In this document: in pieces, positions 6,798-39,664 of the stretch
Numbering within the stretch: position 1 is the first letter of the stretch
Layout of the letters: the number at the start of each line of letters is the position of its first letter
Made by a program: the position numbers and the translations under genes
Source of the DNA: Flavobacterium alkalisoli
GTDB lineage: Bacteria; Bacteroidota; Bacteroidia; Flavobacteriales; Flavobacteriaceae
NCBI RefSeq assembly: GCF_008000935.1
Contig: NZ_CP042831.1
Span: 3,906,001 to 3,970,000, forward strand
Direction: 5' to 3'
Length of the DNA stretch: 64,000 bases
Notes under the pieces: model-generated
Told to the model about the DNA's origin: nothing
Databases searched by the model: none
Seen by the model: the letters and a program-made list of their open reading frames with translations, nothing else

Positions 6798-9293
6798 ATG
6801 AAAAAAATCACCTTATTCTTATTACTGTTTTTTACAGTATTTGCTTTTGCCCAAAAAGAAGCCAATTACTGGTATTTTGGCAATAATGCCGGTATACATT
6901 TTCTTGACGACGGTTCTGTAGTTTCACTGGCCGACAGTAATATGACAACCAATGAAGGCTGTAGTTCAATCTCAGATGCACAGGGCAACTTACTATTTTA
7001 TACAGACGGGCGCACCGTTTGGGATAAAAACCACATTATAATGCCAAACGGAAATTACTTGGGCGGAACAGGTTTGCTTGGCGACCCCTCAAGTACACAA
7101 TCGGGCATTATAGTACCAAAAGCCGACGACCCCAATATCTATTATATTTTTACTGTAGATGAACCCCATCATGAAAATGCCGCAACCTACCCTGATCCTT
7201 TTCCCGGACCGTATACAGACGGCAGTACTATTCCCGCTTCAGACGACGGACTCAACAACGGATTCAATTATTCTATAGTAGACCTTTCGGTAATCGGCGC
7301 CAATGGCAGCGAAGGTGATATAACAACAAGAAATGTTCACCTTGTTACTTACAACCCTGCAAATATTGAAGAGATTAAGTACAAATGTTCTGAAAAGATA
7401 ACCGCCGTAAAAAATGCCGACGGTACAGGGTATTGGGTAATTACACAATTTGTAGACCGGTTTTATTCTTTTTTAGTAGATGCCAATGGTGTTAACGAGA
7501 CACCGGTAGTAAGCCAGTTATTACCTGTAATACCAACTTCAGGATACAGGAGAAATGCTATAGGTTGTTTAAAAATATCGCCCACAGGAAATAAACTTGC
7601 CATTGCCCACATGCAGGTAGGCACCGAAACCGGAGGATCAGCCTCAAATGGTATGGTATACCTGTATGATTTTAATAACAGTACGGGAGCGGTATCCAAT
7701 CCACTACCGATAAAAGAAAATGGTCAGCCGTATGGAGTTGAATTTTCACCTTCGGGTAAAAAGCTATATGCATGTTATGATACGGCAAATGTTATTAGCG
7801 GAATATACCAGTATAATCTTGAAGCTGCTAATATTCCCGGTTCAGAAATTTTTATTGCAGACACCCCGCAATCAGGAACGCTTCAGTTAGGGCCTAACGG
7901 TAAAATTTACAGAGCCGTTGTAAGCTCGCAAAATCTGGATGTTATTAACAACCCTGAAGAAACAGGAGCTGCCTGCGGTTATCAGCAAAACGGAATAACA
8001 TTAGCTAACGGAACAAGCTGCTTTTTTGGACTGCCTCCGTTTATTACCTCCTTTTTTTATGCCAGTATAGAGATTGAAAACACCTGCCTTGGCGATACTT
8101 CTGAATTTACTCTTGCTTTTACCAACGAGTTCGACAGCATAGAATGGGATTTTGGTGACGGAAGTCCTACATCTGCAGAAATTAACCCTACCCACATTTA
8201 TACCGATGCCGGCACTTATAATGTGGTTGCTATTATTGAATATACGGGAGAGAGTTTTACCTTTTCTCAAAATGTTACTATTGCAGAAGTTCCTGTAGCC
8301 AATACAGCTGATAATCTTAGAGAATGTGATACAGGTAGTGACGGTATAGAAAACTTTACACTTGGCGATAATACAAACACCATTTTAGGCAATCAGGATC
8401 CGGAGGATTATGAAGTATTGTACTATGAATCGTTAACTAATGCCCAATTATCATCCGGGGCTTTAAATCCGGACAGTTATAACAACACATCCGATCCCCA
8501 AACAATTTATGCCCGTGTACAAAACAAAAACAACACCAACTGTTATGCAATAACAACATTTACCATAGGTACAATGGGTGTTCCGGGAATAGACGATACT
8601 GCCGAAGCAAGAATATGTGCCAATACAGGCGATCCTGTTACCTTAAGCACAGGTATTACAGGAGCACAGTATACGTATGAGTGGTCTAACGGGCGTACTA
8701 CCCCTACCATACAGGTTACACGTTCAGGCACTTTTTCTGTTACCGTAACCAATGCACACGGCTGCTCTAAAACGCAAACCTTTACAGTTATTCCGTCAGA
8801 CGTTGCCATAATAGAAGATATTGACATTATAGATCTTACAGATAACAATACAGTAACCGTTCATGTTTCTCCAACCGGAGGAGTTAATACAACCTATGAA
8901 TTCAGTATAGATAGACCCCACGGTCCTTTTCAGGAGTCCAATCACTTTGAGAAGGTAGAACCCGGGCTACATACTGTATATGTATCTGATGTGAATGGTT
9001 GTGGTGTAGTGTTTAAAGAGATATCTATACTTTCCATACCTAAATTCTTTACTCCAAACGGCGACGGTGTACATGATACTTGGGACATTGTTGGCATGAA
9101 TTTTAAATTTTACCAAAACAGTACCATATATATTTACGACCGTTACGGTAAGCTCATAGCCAATATAGACCCGAAAGGCTCCGGATGGGACGGAACATAT
9201 AACGGAAACCGTTTACCATCTACCGACTACTGGTATGTTATTAAACTTGACGATGGCCGAACTGTTAAGGGACATTTTAGTATGATTAGATAA
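6798..9293 (+). CDS. T9SS type B cargo protein with PKD domain
   Basis: 831 residues. A signal peptide ends near residue 19 (FAFAQ). Residues 20-420 begin with YWYFGNNAGIHF and contain propeller-like repeats (SDAQGNLLFYTDG, FSPSGKKLYACY). A PKD domain lies at about 430-500 (EWDFGDGSP, HIYTDAGTYNV). One CD-type repeat like those of the preceding protein comes at about 505-590, then an Ig-like region. The last 83 residues (KFFTPNGDGVHDTW to GHFSMIR) are the type B sorting domain. This is a surface or secreted protein of unknown ligand. It shares its end and one repeat type with its neighbour, so the pair probably arose by partial duplication and may be co-expressed. Confidence 0.9.
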   Translation: MKKITLFLLLFFTVFAFAQKEANYWYFGNNAGIHFLDDGSVVSLADSNMTTNEGCSSISDAQGNLLFYTDGRTVWDKNHIIMPNGNYLGGTGLLGDPSSTQSGIIVPKADDPNIYYIFTVDEPHHENAATYPDPFPGPYTDGSTIPASDDGLNNGFNYSIVDLSVIGANGSEGDITTRNVHLVTYNPANIEEIKYKCSEKITAVKNADGTGYWVITQFVDRFYSFLVDANGVNETPVVSQLLPVIPTSGYRRNAIGCLKISPTGNKLAIAHMQVGTETGGSASNGMVYLYDFNNSTGAVSNPLPIKENGQPYGVEFSPSGKKLYACYDTANVISGIYQYNLEAANIPGSEIFIADTPQSGTLQLGPNGKIYRAVVSSQNLDVINNPEETGAACGYQQNGITLANGTSCFFGLPPFITSFFYASIEIENTCLGDTSEFTLAFTNEFDSIEWDFGDGSPTSAEINPTHIYTDAGTYNVVAIIEYTGESFTFSQNVTIAEVPVANTADNLRECDTGSDGIENFTLGDNTNTILGNQDPEDYEVLYYESLTNAQLSSGALNPDSYNNTSDPQTIYARVQNKNNTNCYAITTFTIGTMGVPGIDDTAEARICANTGDPVTLSTGITGAQYTYEWSNGRTTPTIQVTRSGTFSVTVTNAHGCSKTQTFTVIPSDVAIIEDIDIIDLTDNNTVTVHVSPTGGVNTTYEFSIDRPHGPFQESNHFEKVEPGLHTVYVSDVNGCGVVFKEISILSIPKFFTPNGDGVHDTWDIVGMNFKFYQNSTIYIYDRYGKLIANIDPKGSGWDGTYNGNRLPSTDYWYVIKLDDGRTVKGHFSMIR

Positions 9294-32974: not shown

Positions 32975-34399
32975 TTAATCTTCCCGGCTTCCGTCATCGG
33001 CCATTCTTACCATTTTAGGGGTAAATTTAGCCACGACATCCACAAGGTCTGTTTGTGAGGCCATCACGGTGTTGATATCTTTATAAGCCATAGGCGCTTC
33101 ATCTTTTCCTGCCCCAATAAGGGTCACGCCATGGTCTTTAAGTACTTGTCTCATATCATCTCGGGTAATGCTTTTTATAGCCTGTGTTCGGCTCATTTGC
33201 CTTCCCGCTCCATGTGAAGCTGAGTTAATGGAATTTTCTTCTCCTTTACCTCTCACAAGGAATCCCGGTGCCGTCATACTACCCGGTATAATACCCATAA
33301 CCCCTTTACCGGCCGGTGTTGCCCCCTTACGGTGTACTATTACCTCTTCTCCGTTAAGGATTTCCTTCCATGCAAAATTATGATGATTCTCTACCTTAGC
33401 CAGCACTTTACCTCCTAAAGCCCTTTCCATCTTATCATGTATTACCTGATGACAGGCCGATGCATAATCTCCAGCCAGGTTCATAGCCATCCAGTATTCC
33501 TGCCCCTCCTGAGTACTAAGATCCAGATAAGCAAGGTTTTGAGCTTCCCTTGGCAGTTTGCACATACTCTTGGCAAGCTTGGTATAATGTCCTGCTATAG
33601 TAGCACCCAAACCACGTGAACCCGAATGGGTAAGCAAAGCCACATAACGTCCCTTATCTATGTTAAGTATCTCATCTCTTTGTTCAAACTCTATAATACC
33701 AAATTCCACAAAGTGATTACCTCCTCCCGAAGTACCTAACTGAGACCAGGCTTTATCCTGGAGGCTTTTTAAAAGTTGGTTCATATTAAACTCATCACGG
33801 TCTAATATATCGTGAGTCGTTTTATCTCTCCCTTTAAAACCCTGCCCTGCACCAAATTTAGACTGAGCAATAAGCTCCCTTTTAAACTTAGCCTGATTTT
33901 CCATAAAGAATCCTTCAGGAATATCGTATACCGACAGTGCCATTCTACAACCTATATCTACCCCAACCCCATAAGGAATTATGGCATTTTTTGTTGCAAG
34001 CACACCACCTATAGGAAGGCCGTATCCCTGATGGGCATCGGGCATTAAAGACCCCGCTACCGTTACCGGCAGTTTCATTGCCACATCCATTTGGGTCTTC
34101 GCCCCTTCTTCTATATGTTTTTCACCATATATAGTATACGTCTCCGGATTTTCAACAAGAGGTATTTCGTCTTCCTTCAAAATGTTTGCTTCCTCTATCA
34201 TTGCCGAAGCCAGTGTTCCTAAAACTTCGTCATCAAGAAAATTCTCCGGATAATCATTTACTTTCTTTAATAAAGCCAATACTTCTTCTTTTTCCTGAGA
34301 AGCATATTTTTCATTTACCAATGTTAAGGCATGCCCTAAAACCGTGTTTTCTTTAAAACCGATAGTCAATAAATCGGTTCCTGTAATTAATCGTTCCAT
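32975..34399 (-). CDS. rtcB: RtcB-family RNA ligase
   Basis: 474 residues, somewhat longer than the E. coli protein. Catalytic features in order: MPDAHQGYG (121-127), GVDIGCRM with the metal ligand Cys 151, GGGNHF (His 229), THSGSRG (His 258), the ENHHNFAW pair (His 339-340), and SHGAGR with the GMP-accepting His 396. RtcB joins 2',3'-cyclic-phosphate or 3'-phosphate RNA ends to 5'-OH ends using GTP, and repairs broken tRNA and rRNA. It lies downstream of Ro60 and the Y RNA array on the same strand, so it probably ends that transcript. No rtcA gene is present here. Confidence 0.95.
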   Translation of the reverse strand: MERLITGTDLLTIGFKENTVLGHALTLVNEKYASQEKEEVLALLKKVNDYPENFLDDEVLGTLASAMIEEANILKEDEIPLVENPETYTIYGEKHIEEGAKTQMDVAMKLPVTVAGSLMPDAHQGYGLPIGGVLATKNAIIPYGVGVDIGCRMALSVYDIPEGFFMENQAKFKRELIAQSKFGAGQGFKGRDKTTHDILDRDEFNMNQLLKSLQDKAWSQLGTSGGGNHFVEFGIIEFEQRDEILNIDKGRYVALLTHSGSRGLGATIAGHYTKLAKSMCKLPREAQNLAYLDLSTQEGQEYWMAMNLAGDYASACHQVIHDKMERALGGKVLAKVENHHNFAWKEILNGEEVIVHRKGATPAGKGVMGIIPGSMTAPGFLVRGKGEENSINSASHGAGRQMSRTQAIKSITRDDMRQVLKDHGVTLIGAGKDEAPMAYKDINTVMASQTDLVDVVAKFTPKMVRMADDGSRED

Positions 34400-34453
34400 A
34401 ACTTTTTATGTTTGCAATGGTTGCTTTAAACTTAATTTATAATTTTTAAATAG

Positions 34454-34531
34454 AAAAAGAGGCAATAAGCGTAAAGTGATGTAAGATGTCGATTTGGAAA
34501 CGAAGTAACACTTTACAACGGCACTCTTTTA
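34454..34531 (-). ncRNA. Y RNA-like module 6 (minimal, no tRNA-like head)
   Basis: Basal helix AAAAGAG/CTCTTTT (34524-34530 with 34455-34461). The internal loop carries TGCCGT on one strand and GCTTATTGC on the other. The upper helix GTAAAGTG/CACTTTAC has 8 pairs. Only about 30 nt remain for the head, beginning TTACTTCG. All Ro-binding-type features match the other modules, but T- and D-arms are absent, so it is probably a shortened Y RNA or a 3'-terminal form of the array. Confidence 0.75.
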
Positions 34532-34537
34532 CTGCCG

Positions 34538-34619
34538 GGGCTATAAGCAGGAAGTGACATGCAGGATTCGAACCCGCTTTAATCAGCCAGGCGAAGTAAC
34601 ACTTCCCTACGGCACTCAA
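34538..34619 (-). ncRNA. Y RNA-like module 5 (T-arm only, basal helix not found)
   Basis: It has the conserved 5' strand TGCCGTA (34608-34614), the 3' strand GCTTATAGC (34540-34548), an upper helix GGAAGTG/CACTTCC (7 perfect pairs) and TTACTTCG. The head is a single perfect T-arm hairpin GCGGG TTCGAAT CCTGC (34561-34577) with no D-arm or acceptor-like stem. No complementary basal strands are visible. It may be a degenerating copy, or may rely on its neighbours in the precursor. Confidence 0.65.
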
Positions 34620-34635
34620 CAATTTTTTAAAGAAC

Positions 34636-34770
34636 AAAGGAGCAAAAAACGGTAAGAGAACGGGGGCATGTCAAGCCGGAGTCGAACCGGATAGCCTTGC
34701 CATATTAAAATGACTACGCTATTCCTCCCCCTAAGTGGTGACGAAGTATCCCTTACCTACGGCATCCTTA
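34636..34770 (-). ncRNA. Y RNA-like module 4 (three-way-junction head)
   Basis: Basal helix AAGGA/TCCTT, internal-loop strands TGCCGTA and GTTTTTTGC, and the longest upper helix of the set (GGTAAGGGA with TCTCTTACC, nine pairs including one G-T). The head differs from modules 1-3. A GGGGG/CCCCC stem (34727-34731 with 34662-34666) encloses a hairpin (34692-34721) and a T-arm hairpin CCGG TTCGACT CCGG (34676-34690), in the normal tRNA order rather than permuted. The conserved TACTTCG follows the upper helix. Confidence 0.75.
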
Positions 34771-34775
34771 TTTTA

Positions 34776-34912
34776 AAACAGGGCTACAAACGAAAAGAGA
34801 CTATTTCCCGCGCTTACCATCTAAGCTATATCTTTCACTTTCTCGAAGAAAGGGAGAATCGAACTCCCGTCTCAGGAATGGACGAAGTAACTCTTATCTA
34901 CGGCACCTGTTA
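34776..34912 (-). ncRNA. Y RNA-like module 3 with permuted tRNA-like head
   Basis: Basal helix AACAGG/CCTGTT, internal-loop strands TGCCGTA and GTTTGTAGC, upper helix AAGAG/CTCTT. The head holds, in this order, a perfect T-arm GGGAG TTCGATT CTCCC (34852-34868), a closed hairpin TTTCT/AGAAA with a TCG loop, a 12-nt linker and a D-arm GCTTAGATGGTAAGC (34812-34826). The long linker makes it less tRNA-like than modules 1 and 2. It lies four bases after module 2. Confidence 0.82.
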
Positions 34913-34916
34913 TATT

Positions 34917-35051
34917 AAGATGAGGCTATAACCGGAAAGACCTCTCTAACAAGTCTTACCAATTAGACGATATCCTTTTACAGGATAGCAGCTTTTGAAA
35001 CTGCATTGTGTTAACCCCAACGAAGTAATTCTTCCCTACGGCACTCATCTA
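34917..35051 (-). ncRNA. Y RNA-like module 2 with permuted tRNA-like head
   Basis: Basal helix AGATGAG/CTCATCT (7 perfect pairs), internal-loop strands TGCCGTA and GGTTATAGC, upper helix GGGAAGA/TCTTTCC. The T-arm GCAGT TTCAAAA GCTGC (34988-35004) is directly followed by an acceptor-like hairpin TATCC/GGATA (34971-34987), then a 2-nt linker and the D-arm GTCTAATTGGTAAGAC (34953-34968). Spacing equals that of tRNA positions 1-25 and 49-72 if the acceptor ends are joined. It is preceded by hairpin H2. Confidence 0.87.
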
Positions 35052-35066
35052 ATAAGCTTTTATTAA

Positions 35067-35095
35067 GCTCCCGCAACATCCCCTGTTGCAGGAGC
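35067..35095 (-). ncRNA. Hairpin H2 before Y module 2
   Basis: On the minus strand GCTCCTGCAAC pairs with GTTGCGGGAGC (11 pairs, one T-G) around AGGGGAT, followed by TTAATAAAAG. It is a copy of H1 with paired substitutions that keep the helix, so it is selected as RNA. There is no T tract, so a processing signal or protein site is more likely than a terminator. Confidence 0.8.
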
Positions 35096-35106
35096 AATCT
35101 ACAATT

Positions 35107-35229
35107 CAAACAGGGCAAAAGGCAAAAAGAGTTTCTTGCTCTACCAGACTGAGCTACATCTTACGATGACAGGATTTGAACCTGTGACACAGAACTTACG
35201 GAGTAACTCTTATTTACGGCACCTGTTTT
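35107..35229 (-). ncRNA. Y RNA-like module 1 with permuted tRNA-like head
   Basis: Basal helix AAACAGG/CCTGTTT (7 perfect pairs), internal-loop strands TGCCGTA and GCCTTTTGC, upper helix AAGAGTT/AACTCTT (7 perfect pairs). The T-arm ACAGG TTCAAAT CCTGT (35169-35185) abuts an acceptor-like stem CATC/GATG closed by a GTAA loop (35157-35168), then a TA linker and the D-arm GCTC AGTCTGGTA GAGC (35138-35154) with the GG needed for D-loop/T-loop contact. The 5' and 3' ends lie where a tRNA has its anticodon arm, as described for bacterial YrlA RNAs. Confidence 0.9.
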
Positions 35230-35254
35230 TATTATGTTTATGAACTTTTATTAA

Positions 35255-35283
35255 GCTTCCGCAGCATCCCCGGCTGCGGAAGC
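35255..35283 (-). ncRNA. Hairpin H1 between Ro60 and Y module 1
   Basis: GCTTCCGCAGC pairs with GCTGCGGAAGC (11 perfect pairs) around CGGGGAT, followed by TTAATAAAAG. It starts three bases after the Ro60 stop codon. It may protect the mRNA end, mark a cleavage site that frees the Y RNAs, or attenuate transcription. Confidence 0.82.
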
Positions 35284-35286
35284 GAT

Positions 35287-36801
35287 CTACAATTTGATTT
35301 GGCTTATCTTTTCCATAGCAATTGCCGTATCATTTACAGCATTAAGAACATCAAAGATCTTGTCAGACCAGCCAGCTATCAAATACACATCATTTCTTTT
35401 TATATCTAAAGGCATTTTACCATGCCCTGCAAGGTCAAATATATACAGGCTGGCATTTGGTGCTATTTCCTTATACTTTTTCCATGAGCCTTCAAACGAA
35501 TTGAAGCCTGTGCTATCATACATCTGCACATCGGTAAACAACATAACTTTATCTACAACCTCTTTTCTTTTTATAAGGTCGTTAACAACCAGGTAGCCAT
35601 TTGTAGCATAACCTACTTCACCTTCCCTTCTGTAATACTCCAGTACATTTGCCAGTACATTTCTCCTTGGCATGTTTATTATTTTCCAACGGTCGCCAAA
35701 CATACCGCTTATAACATTTTTACATTGCGACTGCATAAGCATACCCAGCATTAGGCCTATATCATAAAGCATTACACTACTCTTTGCCGAAACAGGTTGC
35801 TGCATTGAACCTGAAACGTCGCAGGCAATAACAACCGATGTATTCACACCAAAACCTTTTATGTTTTTAGCACTATGCATTACCGCATCCTCAAGAGCTT
35901 CGAGAACCATAGAGGTATATTTCGATTCATGCTTTTTAACTTCTCTATAAGCTGCAAGAAACCTAAAAGGCAATTGTTTAGATGTTGCCACAGCCTGTTC
36001 GTTAGAAATATAACTGCAAACCATTTTAATATGATTTACGGAAACGCCTGCATCAAGTATATTTCTCAGGTTACGCATTATAGCCATATACCCTACTTTT
36101 TTACTCTCTATTAATTCCTGCCATTTTTGAGCAACTGCCATCTGTTTAACAACCTGATTCTCAAACCTGGTTTTTCCCAGTTCAGAAAGCTCAGTTTCCC
36201 ATGTATAAGGCACAGCAAGTGTATTGGCAGCAATCTTATTAAATACTTCCTGCTGGCTCTCATCTTTTGCTTTAGGGTGAACCAAAAACAGGGCGTCTTT
36301 AAGTTTCACTTCTGTTTTCCTGTTGTATTTGGCAAACTGGTATTCATCAAACCTGTTAAACGACTCTGCAAGTCCTTTTTGTACCTGCTTAGAAAGGCTT
36401 CCCAGTTTTTTTGCACCCTGCCTTTTGTTTGCTATCTGATAGTAAGCTAAAAGCTCGGCAATCTCATCGGCACGCTGTACTACTCCGTTTATTGTTTTAC
36501 TTACTATTGAAGTACCCGACGCCTGTTTTGCAAGTTCAACCGAAAGCACTAAAGGAATACTCCTTAAATACATTTGTGTTCTAACATAAACGGCTAACTT
36601 TGCAACAAACTCGGCATCACATAAAGCCATAAGGTTTATAATTCTTTTAAGTCTTTCGCTTCCCGATTCGTAAAATGTATCACTCAGCCCGGTTGTAACC
36701 ACTGCTGTATACAGTTCCATTTCGGGAGTAACTTTATAAGCTTTAGCTCCTTGGTGATTTACAGTTATGTTTTTGTTTTTGGCTAAAAAATTGAATTTCA
36801 T
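35287..36801 (-). CDS. Ro60/Rsr-type TROVE domain RNA-binding protein
   Basis: 504 residues, close to the length of Ro60. The TROVE HEAT-repeat ring fills residues about 15-310 (LYTAVVTTGLSDTFYE; FVAKLAVYVRTQMYLRSIPL; MAIMRNLRNILDAGVS at 239-254). A von Willebrand A-type domain follows, with an intact metal site DVSGSM at 328-333 (Asp 328, Ser 330, Ser 332). Ro60 rings bind misfolded RNAs through the central hole and Y RNAs on the outer surface; bacterial Rsr with a Y RNA can gate a nuclease. The array of Y-like modules directly downstream on the same strand fits this exactly. Confidence 0.93.
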   Translation of the reverse strand: MKFNFLAKNKNITVNHQGAKAYKVTPEMELYTAVVTTGLSDTFYESGSERLKRIINLMALCDAEFVAKLAVYVRTQMYLRSIPLVLSVELAKQASGTSIVSKTINGVVQRADEIAELLAYYQIANKRQGAKKLGSLSKQVQKGLAESFNRFDEYQFAKYNRKTEVKLKDALFLVHPKAKDESQQEVFNKIAANTLAVPYTWETELSELGKTRFENQVVKQMAVAQKWQELIESKKVGYMAIMRNLRNILDAGVSVNHIKMVCSYISNEQAVATSKQLPFRFLAAYREVKKHESKYTSMVLEALEDAVMHSAKNIKGFGVNTSVVIACDVSGSMQQPVSAKSSVMLYDIGLMLGMLMQSQCKNVISGMFGDRWKIINMPRRNVLANVLEYYRREGEVGYATNGYLVVNDLIKRKEVVDKVMLFTDVQMYDSTGFNSFEGSWKKYKEIAPNASLYIFDLAGHGKMPLDIKRNDVYLIAGWSDKIFDVLNAVNDTAIAMEKISQIKL

Positions 36802-36868
36802 AATACTAATCTTTTACTGTTAAACTTAAAATTGATAAGGTGTGGTTTTAATGTCTCATCCTGACATT

Positions 36869-36877
36869 GCAAATATG
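36869..36877 (-). promoter_or_regulatory. Probable -7 box of the Ro60 promoter
   Basis: CATATTTGC on the minus strand, one mismatch from TAnnTTTGC. The operator-like repeat lies just upstream of it, over the expected -33 region. The leader to the Ro60 ATG would be about 65 bases. Confidence 0.45.
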
Positions 36878-36887
36878 GCCGTACGTA

Positions 36888-36906
36888 TGCGCAATGAAAA
36901 TGCGCA
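36888..36906. promoter_or_regulatory. Operator-like repeat TGCGCA-N7-TGCGCA, Ro60 side
   Basis: Two self-complementary TGCGCA hexamers seven bases apart, with the spacer ATGAAAA. The same layout occurs 112 bases away beside the regulator's promoter. It probably binds the WYL regulator. Confidence 0.7.
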
Positions 36907-36999
36907 GTGAATTTTTTTTTCATTATTTTCAATGAAAATATTGACTACCAATCATTTAACAAGTAAAATAATTTCAAAATATGTTTAAAAAAACAAATC

Positions 37000-37018
37000 T
37001 GCGCAAATAGAATGCGCA
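37000..37018. promoter_or_regulatory. Operator-like repeat TGCGCA-N7-TGCGCA, regulator side
   Basis: Two TGCGCA hexamers seven bases apart, with the spacer AATAGAA. It ends 17 bases before the -7 box of the WYL gene, covering the -33 region, so autoregulation is likely. Confidence 0.7.
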
Positions 37019-37035
37019 GTAAAAGTATTTTTATC

Positions 37036-37043
37036 TATTTTTG
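37036..37043 (+). promoter_or_regulatory. -7 box TATTTTTG of the WYL regulator gene
   Basis: Exact TAnnTTTG match, 38 bases before the ATG. Confidence 0.6.
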
Positions 37044-37081
37044 AAAGGCCTTTTTTAACCAAAAAACCAAATCCTTACCAA

Positions 37082-38107
37082 ATGGCTACAAATAAGCTTG
37101 CCCTTTTACGATATAAAACCATTGACGAATGCCTTAAAAACCGATTCAGGAAATGGACACTGGAAGACCTTATAGAAAAAGTATCGTATGCCTTATACGA
37201 ATATGAGGGTATTTCTACCGGGGTAAGCAAAAGGACTATTCAGTCTGACATTCAAACCATGCGTAGTGATAAGCTGGGATACAATGCCCCTATTGTTGTT
37301 ATTGACAAAAGGTTTTATACTTATGAAGATTCCGATTACAGTATAACCAATTCTCCTATCAATACTGCCGATATGGATAAGATGAAGGAGATAGTAAGCG
37401 TTTTGAAGCACTTAAATGGCTTTAACTACTTTGACGAAATGAGTGATCTTATCGCAAAACTGGAAAACAACGTAAACAAATCGGCCGACAGTAATAAGAA
37501 CTACATTCAGTTTGAAGACAACAAAAACCTTAAGGGAATTGAACATATTAGCCCTTTGTATCAGGCTATTTTAAATAAAACACCGCTACTTATAGAGTAT
37601 AAATCATTCAAAGCTTTAAAAGCTAGTAATGAAATTTACTACCCATACCTTTTAAAAGAGTACAGAAACAGATGGTTTTTGGTTTGCAGGCCAAAAAAAA
37701 ACCAAAACCTTCTTACTCTGGCCCTGGACAGGATTATTGAATTTCATTCCCTTTCAAAAGAACTGTATGTTGAATATGACGGTGTAAATTTTGACCGTTA
37801 TTTTAATGATTTGCTGGGAGTAACAAAATCTCAAAAAGACAGGCCCAGTAAAGTAATACTGCATGTAAACAAATACAACGCCCCTTATGTAATAACTAAA
37901 CCCATCCATCATTCGCAACAGATTGTTAAAGAGGATGAAACCGGTATTATAATACGGATAGATGTGGTTCATAACTTTGAATTGGAAAGGGAGATATTGG
38001 GCTTTGGGGAATGCATGAAGGTTTTGGCCCCAAGAAAGCTTAAAAGTATTATAGCTGCGAGGATTAATAAATCGGCAGAAAGATATCATAACGAAGAGGA
38101 ATCTTAA
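37082..38107 (+). CDS. WYL-domain transcriptional regulator with N-terminal HTH
   Basis: 341 residues. An N-terminal winged-helix region (RKWTLEDLIEKVSYALYEY, GVSKRTIQSDIQTMRSD) is followed by a linker, a WYL domain (LIEYKSFKALKAS, YPYLLKEYRNRWFLVC, LALDRI) and a WCX-like C-terminus. WYL domains bind ligands, in some cases nucleic acids or nucleotides, and control DNA-repair and defence genes. It is divergent from Ro60 with two matching TGCGCA-N7-TGCGCA sites between, so it probably controls the Ro60-Y RNA-RtcB unit, the job done by RtcR in Proteobacteria. Confidence 0.9.
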   Translation: MATNKLALLRYKTIDECLKNRFRKWTLEDLIEKVSYALYEYEGISTGVSKRTIQSDIQTMRSDKLGYNAPIVVIDKRFYTYEDSDYSITNSPINTADMDKMKEIVSVLKHLNGFNYFDEMSDLIAKLENNVNKSADSNKNYIQFEDNKNLKGIEHISPLYQAILNKTPLLIEYKSFKALKASNEIYYPYLLKEYRNRWFLVCRPKKNQNLLTLALDRIIEFHSLSKELYVEYDGVNFDRYFNDLLGVTKSQKDRPSKVILHVNKYNAPYVITKPIHHSQQIVKEDETGIIIRIDVVHNFELEREILGFGECMKVLAPRKLKSIIAARINKSAERYHNEEES

Positions 38108-38540: not shown

Positions 38541-39071
38541 ATGATCACCAAACCCCTTATTGGCGAATATCCGCCGAGACTGGAAGCGTATATAGGCCTC
38601 ACTAAAGAAGACGGACTTATACATTTAATGAGACAGGATAGAAACTGTACCTATAATTTCTTTAAGAACATCAGTCCTGACATGGCTAATTACTGCTATG
38701 CCGAAGGAAAATGGAGCATTAAACAGGTACTGATGCATATAAATTATGTGGAGAGAATCATGCAGTATCGTGCATTAGCTGCATCAAGAGGAGACAACCA
38801 AACTCCTTTTGGATTTACCAACCACGAAGCCTACATACAAAACGCAGAAGTGGAACGCCATGACATTGACGAACTTTTGGAAGAGTTTAATGTAATACGC
38901 AATTATAGCATAGAATTCTTTTCAGGATTAACAGAAAAGCAATCACAACTTTGCCTTGGAAGCGGAGAAGACACTGTTTCTGCAAGAGCAGTAGGATACG
39001 CCCTGTTGGGCCATGTGCGCCACCACATGAATATTATTAACGAACGCTATCTTAACACCGTAGCAGAATAA
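38541..39071 (+). CDS. DinB-family protein
   Basis: 176 residues forming a DinB/YfiT four-helix bundle: LMRQDRNCTYNFFKNIS, YAEGKWSIKQVLMHINYVER with the first metal-binding His, and LLGHVRHHMNIINERYL with the second pair. Members are metal-dependent, thiol-dependent enzymes or of unknown function; some act in bacillithiol use, and bshC is in this window, but a link is only a guess. It lies between the HMA-like and reductase-like genes. Confidence 0.85.
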   Translation: MITKPLIGEYPPRLEAYIGLTKEDGLIHLMRQDRNCTYNFFKNISPDMANYCYAEGKWSIKQVLMHINYVERIMQYRALAASRGDNQTPFGFTNHEAYIQNAEVERHDIDELLEEFNVIRNYSIEFFSGLTEKQSQLCLGSGEDTVSARAVGYALLGHVRHHMNIINERYLNTVAE

Positions 39072-39100
39072 ATCATGCACGTAATAAACGAACTTTAACT

Positions 39101-39664
39101 ATGAGAAAAGTAATTCTAGACCTTGCCGTTACGCTTGATGGTTTTATTGAAGGACCAAATGGTGAAATTGACTGGTGCATTATGGATACAGATATTGGAG
39201 CAGGAGAGAAAAATTTCCTGGAAACTTTTCCTGAAGAAATTGACACTGTATTTTACGGACGAAAAAGCTATGAACTATATGGCAACTATCAACCTGAAGA
39301 AGAAAGTGGCTTCAAAGACTTTTATGATAAAATAAATCGAATGAAAAAATATATTTTTTCATCAACACTTACCAATGCCGGAGAAAATACCATAATAAGA
39401 GATAAAATTGCTGAAGAAGTAAATCAGATAAAAAACCAAAAAGGAAAGGATATCTGGCTTTTTGGAGGTGCATCTCTTATTACAGCTTTCATCAACAACA
39501 ATCTTATTGATGAATACAGACTTGCAGTTCATCCTGTAGTATTAGGTGGTGGAAAGCCATTGTTTCAGGATATAAGACAGCGATTAAACCTCGAGCTTAT
39601 CGAAGTAAGGTCTTCTAAATCGGGTGTTACAAGTTTATATTACAAACCTGCTTCAGTCAAATAA
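39101..39664 (+). CDS. Dihydrofolate reductase / RibD C-terminal family protein
   Basis: 187 residues, starting KVILDLAVTLDGFIEGPNGE (family signature), with GRKSYELYG, KYIFSSTLTN, KGKDIWLFGGASLITAFINN and the EYRLAVHPVVLGGGKPLF end. NAD(P)H-dependent reductases of this type have unassigned substrates. A strong terminator follows immediately, closing a three-gene run. Confidence 0.92.
   Translation: MRKVILDLAVTLDGFIEGPNGEIDWCIMDTDIGAGEKNFLETFPEEIDTVFYGRKSYELYGNYQPEEESGFKDFYDKINRMKKYIFSSTLTNAGENTIIRDKIAEEVNQIKNQKGKDIWLFGGASLITAFINNNLIDEYRLAVHPVVLGGGKPLFQDIRQRLNLELIEVRSSKSGVTSLYYKPASVK

What the first reader, a model, noticed from the sequence alone, without database searches (positions are those of the whole stretch)
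32975..38107. Ro60 - Y RNA array - RtcB island with a WYL regulator
A TROVE/Ro60 gene and an RtcB ligase gene lie on one strand with about 890 bases between them that carry six Y RNA-like modules and no protein gene. A WYL regulator is divergent, with paired palindromic sites in the shared promoter region. This is an RNA-repair or RNA quality-control operon parallel to the Rsr-YrlA-RtcBA operons of Proteobacteria, but with a different type of regulator, no rtcA here, and an array of structurally different Y RNAs instead of one or two. I am not aware of such an expanded array being described.
Basis: partly seen in the sequence, partly recalled or inferred. Interest (0 to 1): 0.95.

Follow-up and report, generated by a model that had tools for sequence, protein, structure and literature searches.

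The report
Array of interchangeable Ro60 adaptor RNAs
Between a Ro60 gene and an RNA-ligase gene, this Flavobacterium-like genome carries six predicted small-RNA genes in a row that share one stem but differ in their heads, several of them tRNA-like, and they likely let one ring-shaped protein dock with different RNA-handling partners when cellular RNA is damaged.

Summary
TROVE/Ro60 and RtcB flank 887 nt with six Y-RNA modules. A covariance model built only from relatives, window left out, finds those six and nothing else in the window up to E=10, or in the 3.99-Mb genome at E<=1e-3. Three heads are permuted-tRNA-like, one is a T-arm junction head, one a T arm alone; the sixth module has none. 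Arrays are the rule in the loci examined: 79 of 81 have at least 3 modules, up to 11, with recurring head types and strong covariation. In 11 of 81 loci, not here, one module carries 23S rRNA H69-H71 sequence, 33/33 nt at best. A relaxed form of TGCGCA-N7-TGCGCA lies in 77 of 81 Ro60 promoters (36 of 1567 random stretches) and before other RNA-processing genes, so the divergent WYL protein probably controls an RNA-repair regulon. Most likely Ro60 uses the Y RNAs as exchangeable adaptors; expression and binding are untested. Bacterial Y RNAs are known; the array, head variety, rRNA mimic and WYL regulon look new, but key reviews could not be read.

The parts
32975..34399 (-). RtcB RNA ligase, last gene of the likely operon
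   Evidence: PF01139 281.6 bits; PDB relatives are RtcB ligases; 72-88% identical RtcB downstream of Ro60 in 10 of 11 same-genus loci fetched, one of them a partial match
34455..34532 (-). Y module M6: minimal, stem only, no head
   Evidence: R1 match 50.9 bits, E 2.4e-9; fold z -3.0
34533..34623 (-). Y module M5: T-arm-only head (GCGGGTTCGAATCCTGC)
   Evidence: R1 match 39.5 bits, E 8.7e-7; T arm. Against: minimum-energy fold of the single sequence does not show the Y stem
34635..34773 (-). Y module M4: type B head (GGGG/CCCC, GGAATAGC/GCTATCC with hairpin, T arm)
   Evidence: R1 match 134.7 bits, E 3.8e-28; 58-sequence alignment, 20 of 29 pairs covary
34776..34914 (-). Y module M3: permuted-tRNA-like head (T arm then AGCUUAG D arm)
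   Evidence: R1 match 43.3 bits, E 1.3e-7; weak YrlA match 16.1 bits
34918..35052 (-). Y module M2: permuted-tRNA-like head, CGUCUAA D arm, odd T loop
   Evidence: R1 match 36.8 bits, E 3.6e-6; D-arm class. Against: minimum-energy fold keeps the outer stem but not the inner one
35108..35230 (-). Y module M1: permuted-tRNA-like head (T arm, acceptor-like hairpin, AGCUCAG D arm)
   Evidence: Rfam YrlA 43.8 bits, E 3.9e-8, below gathering 69; R1 43.7 bits, E 1e-7
35052..35106 (-). second copy of the hairpin segment found after the Ro60 stop codon, in front of M2
   Evidence: 84% identical over 55 nt to 35240-35294
35240..35294 (-). hairpin segment overlapping the Ro60 stop codon, in front of M1; possible processing or termination element
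   Evidence: direct repeat and inverted repeat
35287..36801 (-). TROVE/Ro60 ring protein with vWA domain; D328, S330, S332, T400, D424 (MIDAS motif, recalled) invariant in the 17 aligned proteins
   Evidence: PF05731 100.8 bits; alignment A1; model matches solved Ro60/Rsr folds, e.g. 2nvo TMq 0.68, 9kop 0.69
36870..36873 (-). TTTG of the likely Ro60 promoter (-7 element, Bacteroidota type, recalled)
   Evidence: TTTG starts 14 nt past the operator; 13-14 nt in 72 of the 77 loci with an operator there
36888..36906 (.). operator 1, TGCGCA-N7-TGCGCA, about 87 bp upstream of Ro60
37000..37018 (.). operator 2, TGCGCA-N7-TGCGCA, about 63 bp upstream of the WYL gene; next TTTG 21 nt on, not at the 13-14 nt spacing of the Ro60 side
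37082..38107 (+). divergent WYL/WCX transcription regulator
   Evidence: PF13280 39.3 bits, PF25583 39 bits; no PDB relative by sequence at E<=0.001

Best explanation
The locus encodes one Ro60 ring protein, an RtcB RNA ligase and six predicted Y RNAs that share a Ro60-type stem but differ in their heads, and these RNAs likely serve as exchangeable adaptors that connect the ring to different RNA-handling partners. Proposed working: the divergent WYL protein probably holds the divergent promoters through the TGCGCA-N7-TGCGCA sites, and on a damage signal (inferred: a nucleic-acid fragment) it would allow transcription of Ro60, array and RtcB. The long transcript would then be cut into separate Y RNAs, each protected by Ro60 (inferred). 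Heads that imitate tRNA parts, or 23S H69-H71 in some Chryseobacterium, would recruit enzymes that act on those RNAs, such as PNPase or modifying enzymes; the headless form would simply close the Ro60 surface. RtcB would rejoin salvageable broken RNAs while Ro60 with the exonuclease would clear the rest. Shown here: the gene order, six modules, shared stem, head variety and its recurrence in relatives, the operators and their placement. Inferred: transcription, processing, Ro60 binding, partners, direction of regulation.
For: Six modules found independently of the window and nowhere else in the genome; two genomes without a Ro60 match have none, one of which, G022, does carry a 71% RtcB. All 412 matches (E<=0.01) in 80 named loci lie on the Ro60 strand (38 of these modules built the model), as do all 36 (E<=0.05) in 13 of 19 more distant loci. 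Stem pairing: own arms score 30.5 against 18.4 for arms swapped between loci and 17.6 for shuffles, 402 modules. Type B: 98.4% of cells paired, 20 pairs with double changes, 0 of 500 shuffles reach it, slid versions 38-52% paired. Head order recurs: A-B-m-T-m in 11 of 23 Flavobacterium loci, arrays ending in A-B in 29 of 42 Chryseobacterium/Epilithonimonas loci (types, counted). Head swapping: the type-A module of F. beibuense has end segments 93-95% like M3 and a central part 90% like M1. R head: 33/33 nt of 23S H69-H71, E 1e-12, with an H69-like hairpin re-formed using the Y core. Relaxed operator in 77 of 81 Ro60 upstream stretches against 36 of 1567 random stretches of the same loci, also within 130 nt upstream of a module in 25 of 81 loci and of rtcB in 6 of 24. 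Elsewhere it stands before RtcB-like, RlaP, or phosphoesterase-exonuclease genes. Literature: in D. radiodurans Y RNA tethers Rsr to PNPase (PMC7790460, passages; PMC8394870, passages).
Against: No expression, processing or binding data exist here. M2 and M5 do not show the full Y stem in their single-sequence minimum-energy folds, and M3, M4 and M5 fold little or no better than shuffles (z -0.9, -1.3, -0.3). The array stands without adjacent rtcB and WYL in all 42 Chryseobacterium/Epilithonimonas loci (one of the 42, L207, is cut off before any array), so RtcB is not an obligate neighbour. No partner of any head is identified. The B-type pseudoknot is only weakly supported (own 3.52 bp, swapped 3.23, largest of 200 swaps 3.375). 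The R head is absent from this window.
Confidence: 0.55

Rival explanations
1. Decoy array: the heads imitate tRNA D and T arms and the 23S H69-H71 strand so as to occupy toxins or nucleases that attack tRNA and rRNA, while RtcB repairs what has been cut. The shared stem would only stabilise the decoys on Ro60.
For: A, Tx and x heads match tRNA D and T arms far above shuffles (mean score D 13.7 against 7.6, T 15.1 against 7.0, 209 modules), and R heads match 23S rRNA. More than one D-arm class occurs in 17 of 76 loci. Hughes et al. suggest the tRNA-like part of YrlA could competitively inhibit an anticodon nuclease (PMC7790460, passage).
Against: In the permuted layout the Y stem takes the place of the anticodon arm, the usual target of tRNases (my reading of the sequences, not a systematic test). 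Headless modules, present in 69 of the 80 loci that have modules by my rules, could not be decoys.
Confidence: 0.2
2. Gene-dosage expansion: tandem duplication raised the number of ordinary Y RNAs, and the heads have drifted without separate functions.
For: Hairpin plus module looks duplicated in this window; module number varies from 2 to 11 between loci that have any.
Against: Head types, their order and their pairing recur between species and genera, and the R head keeps a 23S sequence; drift would not do this.
Confidence: 0.1
3. The array is a cis-acting leader of rtcB: folding or processing of tRNA-like modules tunes read-through into RtcB according to tRNA damage.
For: In the window there is no operator between array and rtcB, so one transcript probably covers both; M6 ends 55 nt before the RtcB start codon.
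Against: In 6 of 24 loci with rtcB downstream, rtcB has its own operator within 140 nt upstream, after the array, and 42 of 42 Chryseobacterium/Epilithonimonas loci lack rtcB next to Ro60.
Confidence: 0.07

Closest known systems
rsr-yrlBA-rtcBA RNA-repair operon of Salmonella (Hughes et al. 2020, PMC7790460, passages read)
   Same: Ro60 gene, Y RNA genes and RtcB in one cluster in that order; a regulator gene adjacent
   Different: WYL regulator instead of the CARF-domain activator RtcR; no RtcA in this genome or 9 others searched; six Y modules instead of two
YrlA, Rfam RF02553
   Same: permuted-tRNA head on a Ro60-type stem; M1 aligns over the full model
   Different: M1 scores 43.8 bits against a gathering score of 69; M3 16.1; the other four are not matched at E<=5
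Deinococcus radiodurans Rsr-Y RNA-PNPase (RYPER)
   Same: Ro60 fold (2nvo TMq 0.68); the adaptor idea is taken from this system (passages)
   Different: one tethering Y RNA described in what I read; here several head types in one array
WYL regulators PafBC, DriD, CapW, BrxR
   Same: WYL domain protein beside promoters it may control; ssDNA is the ligand of PafBC and DriD (PMC11804915, abstract and passages)
   Different: no PDB relative by sequence; likely targets are RNA-repair genes; PafBC was not activated by a 12-nt ssRNA in vitro (passage)
RtcB2-PrfH rRNA-repair operon (PMC9223846, abstract)
   Same: an RtcB-like ligase outside the Ro60 locus; in Chryseobacterium-type genomes the WYL homologue sits near such a gene
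   Different: RlaP lies near that ligase in the three loci scanned, and its score is far below the release_rtcB cut-off (50.5 of 271.8 bits); PrfH was not looked for

Membership tests
TROVE/Ro60 protein | TROVE domain at Pfam cut-off | tested here: met
   100.8 bits, cut-off 23
TROVE/Ro60 protein | ring plus vWA fold | tested here: met
   model mean pLDDT 81.9; the 13 best PDB matches are Ro60/Rsr/TROVE structures, E down to 6.9e-19
Rsr equivalog (NCBIfam NF041674) | curated score 900 | tested here: not met
   28.7 bits; so Ro60-like, not filed as that Rsr subfamily
YrlA (RF02553) | gathering score 69 | tested here: not met
   best 43.8 bits
bacterial Y RNA in the wide sense | gene next to a Ro60 gene on the same strand | tested here: met
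   412 of 412 matches on the Ro60 strand; none in two genomes without Ro60
bacterial Y RNA in the wide sense | conserved basal stem formed by 5' and 3' ends | tested here: met
   M2 and M5 less clear as single sequences
bacterial Y RNA in the wide sense | tRNA-like head in at least one RNA of the set | tested here: met
bacterial Y RNA in the wide sense | binding to Ro60 | not testable with these tools
   needs pull-down
RtcB ligase | RtcB domain with catalytic motifs | tested here: met
   281.6 bits; DIGC, GNHF, HSGSRG, VHRKGAT, SHGAGR present in the alignment to 4dwr (motif roles recalled)
RtcR-controlled rtcBA operon | rtcA and RtcR | tested here: not met
   no RTC domain in 10 of 10 genomes; adjacent regulator is WYL; RtcR itself was not searched
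WYL regulator | WYL and WCX domains | tested here: met
   39.3 and 39 bits, above cut-offs 21.8 and 23.9
WYL regulator | binds the palindromes and responds to a ligand | not testable with these tools
   placement only

The most novel reading that the evidence does not exclude
Bacteroidota keep a recombining library of Ro60 guide RNAs: cassettes with one docking stem and swappable heads that copy pieces of the cell's own tRNAs and 23S rRNA, switched on as a set by a WYL sensor, so that a single Ro60 ring can be re-addressed to whichever RNA class, or its processing enzymes, is in trouble.
Probability: 0.3. Interest if true: 0.93.

Novelty: new variant of a known kind. Interest (0 to 1): 0.83.

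Why it matters
What Y RNAs do beyond one bacterial tether is an old open question. A natural series of Y RNAs with a constant stem and recurring, different heads (tRNA-like, T-arm only, junction type, none, and 23S-like in relatives) in one locus, ready for single deletions and pull-downs, makes the adaptor idea directly testable. The 23S-like head would be the first Y RNA known to me that imitates rRNA. The shared operator ties Ro60, Y RNAs and RtcB to other RNA-processing genes (RtcB-like ligase, RlaP, Band-7/phosphoesterase/exonuclease clusters) and gives a likely second regulatory route to RNA repair besides RtcR. No module reaches Rfam's gathering score in the window or in the ten related loci scanned, so annotation based on Rfam misses them.

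Tried and rejected
Rejected: chance repeats; degenerate tRNA genes (ARAGORN sees only two tRNA-Glu elsewhere in the window); assembly artefact for the 23S-like head (11 named loci from separate records); all heads being rRNA mimics (at E<=0.01 only R modules hit rRNA, type A hits the tRNAs of the rDNA operon, shuffles give 1 hit); the ~215-nt tRNA-like RNA as a core part (5 of 395 genomes of the order, of which only G152 is also among the 36 with Ro60); 16S or 23S mimicry of that RNA (no rRNA match over 15 nt). A first reading that the operator of G068 precedes an Rnl2-type RNA ligase was dropped on checking: that gene points towards the operator, and what follows is a stretch with tRNA-like arms and a Band_7-phosphoesterase-exonuclease cluster. 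Weak and left open: pseudoknot in type B; assignment of single heads to one tRNA isotype (127 of 209 D arms fall in 'other' by my strict patterns).

Module types come from simple rules; some long inserts join two modules, and T and m are at times confused (e.g. L146, L147). Of 483 scan hits I dropped 8 (4 inside rtcB, 4 isolated); an earlier filter (474), used, also wrongly dropped the four hits of L222. The type-B alignment A2 holds 58 of 65 distinct type-B hits; A5 holds 38.

Papers: Chen 2014, Sim and Wolin 2018, Sim 2020 and Burroughs and Aravind 2016 are not held. From recall, Chen 2014 reports Y RNAs near Ro60 in more than 250 species, at least one per species tRNA-like. Searches for YrlA/Ro60, Y RNA with Flavobacterium or Chryseobacterium, rRNA mimic and similar terms listed no paper on arrays or rRNA-like Y RNAs by title or abstract start.


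Full report
What is there. The window lies in a 3,985,855-base single-contig genome whose closest named Ro60 relatives are Flavobacterium beibuense and F. rakeshii at 86-87%. On the minus strand follow Ro60 (35287-36801), 887 nt with no ORF over 73 aa, and RtcB (32975-34399); a WYL/WCX regulator (37082-38107) points away. The Ro60 protein is divergent by sequence (NCBIfam Rsr 28.7 of 900 bits) but its predicted structure matches solved Ro60/Rsr structures.

Six modules. Each begins GUG-Y-CGU or a close variant, then the 5' arm of an inner helix, then UACUUCG or a close variant, and closes with the inner and outer 3' arms. Rfam's YrlA model gives 43.8 bits for M1 and 16.1 for M3, below its gathering score of 69. 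To test independently, I aligned 38 type-B modules from relatives, left the window out, and built a covariance model. It finds six matches in the window, E 3.8e-28 to 3.6e-6, and none other up to E=10. In the whole genome it finds the same six at E<=1e-3; in G152, G118 and G338, which carry Ro60, it finds 5, 3 and 2; in G010 and G022, which had no Ro60 match, none. G022 does carry a 71% RtcB, so the modules go with Ro60, not with RtcB.

Heads. M1 and M3 carry T arm followed by D arm, the circularly permuted tRNA of YrlA. M2 has the same plan with a CGUCUAA-type D arm and an odd T loop. M4 is a distinct type B: GGGG/CCCC, GGA(A)UAGC/GCUAUCC enclosing a hairpin, then a T arm. M5 has a T arm only. 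M6 has no head. In 58 type-B sequences 98.4% of cells pair, 20 of 29 pairs change on both sides, no shuffle of 500 reaches this, and slid partners drop to 38-52%. Against: the single-sequence minimum-energy folds of M2 and M5 miss part or all of the Y stem, and only M1, M2 and M6 fold clearly better than shuffles.

Arrays are general. Ro60 of this type occurs in 9 of 150 near relatives, 36 of 395 genomes of the order and 31 of 395 of the phylum, this genome counted each time. In 80 named loci plus the window a stem scan finds, at score 24 or more, 477 hits on the Ro60 strand against 19 on the other. After clean-up 475 modules remain; 79 of 81 loci have three or more, 63 five or more, one has 11; the one locus with none ends about 200 bases after Ro60. 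The covariance model gives 412 matches at E<=0.01 in the 80 loci, every one on the Ro60 strand, and 36 at E<=0.05 in 13 of 19 more distant loci, again all on that strand. Order recurs: A-B-m-T-m appears unbroken in 11 of 23 Flavobacterium loci, and the array ends in A-B, at most followed by one stray hit, in 29 of 42 Chryseobacterium/Epilithonimonas loci.

Head swapping. The type-A module of F. beibuense has end segments 93-95% identical to M3 and a central part 90% identical to M1. So stem and head appear to recombine as cassettes. This genome holds two modules more than F. beibuense and F. rakeshii.

A 23S-like head. In 11 of 81 loci (10 of 42 Chryseobacterium/Epilithonimonas, one MAG) a module of about 225 nt carries, directly after the UUCG of the core, 23S H69-H71 sequence: 33/33 nt at best (E 1e-12 against 23S of this genome and of G313, which holds the same array as L189), 88-97% over 25-33 nt in the others tested. 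The consensus fold of ten of them re-forms an H69-like hairpin (three of its four pairs in 10 of 10, the fourth in 9; the loop is shortened in four) and the Y stem with double changes. Other module types do not match rRNA at E<=0.01. The window has no such head. A further head with the conserved CCYGAAUAACAGUAAGGA occurs in 11 loci and stays unassigned.

Regulation. TGCGYA-N7-TGCGCA occurs in this genome only at 36888-36906 and 37000-37018. A relaxed form lies within 220 nt upstream of Ro60 in 77 of 81 loci, against 36 of 1567 random stretches of that size from the same loci, with TTTG 13-14 nt further on in 72 of the 77; it would cover the -33 region of the likely promoter (promoter type recalled). 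It also stands within 130 nt upstream of a module in 25 of 81 loci and within 140 nt of rtcB in 6 of 24. Elsewhere in the genomes searched exactly it lies between a divergent RtcB-like ligase and a 110-aa gene followed by the WYL homologue, with RlaP next (G352); 36 nt before RlaP in a neighbourhood with an RtcB-like gene and the WYL homologue (G313); and before clusters with calcineurin-like phosphoesterase and RNase_T exonuclease genes in G068 and G231 (with Band_7 in G068, not seen in G231), or before a 131-aa ORF, Band_7 and phosphoesterase in G079. In three genomes (G011, G079, G347) further TGCGTA-type matches lie on other contigs or far away and were not examined. This points to a WYL-controlled RNA-repair regulon. 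Activation or repression is not decided: PafBC and DriD are activators responding to ssDNA, while immune-system WYL factors are repressors (PMC11804915, passages).

Mechanism. Known biology (PMC7790460 and PMC8394870, passages) has Y RNA tether Rsr to PNPase, and YrlA heads accepted by tRNA-modifying enzymes. The array extends this: constant stem, varied heads. I therefore favour exchangeable adaptors, with decoys as the main rival. Transcription, processing, binding and partners are inferred.

Verdict. The wider finding is that this is a typed, apparently recombining Y RNA array shared by many Bacteroidota Ro60 loci, with an rRNA-like member in relatives, under a shared operator.

Noticed in passing
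L041 (4814-5027 -), L045 (3906-4119 -), L153, L177, L193, L194, L198, L201, L209: A ~215-nt RNA-like element with tRNA-like acceptor, D and T arms and a strongly conserved ~140-nt insert in place of the anticodon arm, in L153, L177 and L201 right behind a WYL-type operator. In the order it occurs in 5 of 395 genomes, only one of which also has this Ro60; no Rfam match at gathering in L041 and L045.
   Followed up: partly
L276 (G068), about 7330-7540 on the minus strand: Tandem T-arm and D-arm-like stretches directly after a WYL-type operator, in front of a Band_7-phosphoesterase-exonuclease cluster; perhaps another tRNA-like RNA of the regulon.
   Followed up: no
own genome, G000:C1:1014336-1015706: A second RtcB homologue (51%) with six in-frame stops; intact ~51-53% copies exist in relatives.
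   Followed up: no
L041, L045, L047 between Ro60 and rtcB: Protein-coding stretches inserted in the array region; one of them, similar by eye in all three, stands behind its own WYL-type operator in L041.
   Followed up: no
L167, L168, L189, L192, L196, L206, L210, L213, L216, L218, L224: A further Y-module head with the conserved CCYGAAUAACAGUAAGGA motif; no rRNA match.
   Followed up: partly
L268 (G352), L270 (G313), L272 (G323): RtcB-like ligase with RlaP nearby; a conserved ~585-aa protein of no Pfam or NCBIfam family lies beside the RtcB-like gene in L268.
   Followed up: partly
window 38541-39664: DinB-family and RibD_C-domain genes downstream of the WYL gene; no sign of a link to the array.
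   Followed up: no
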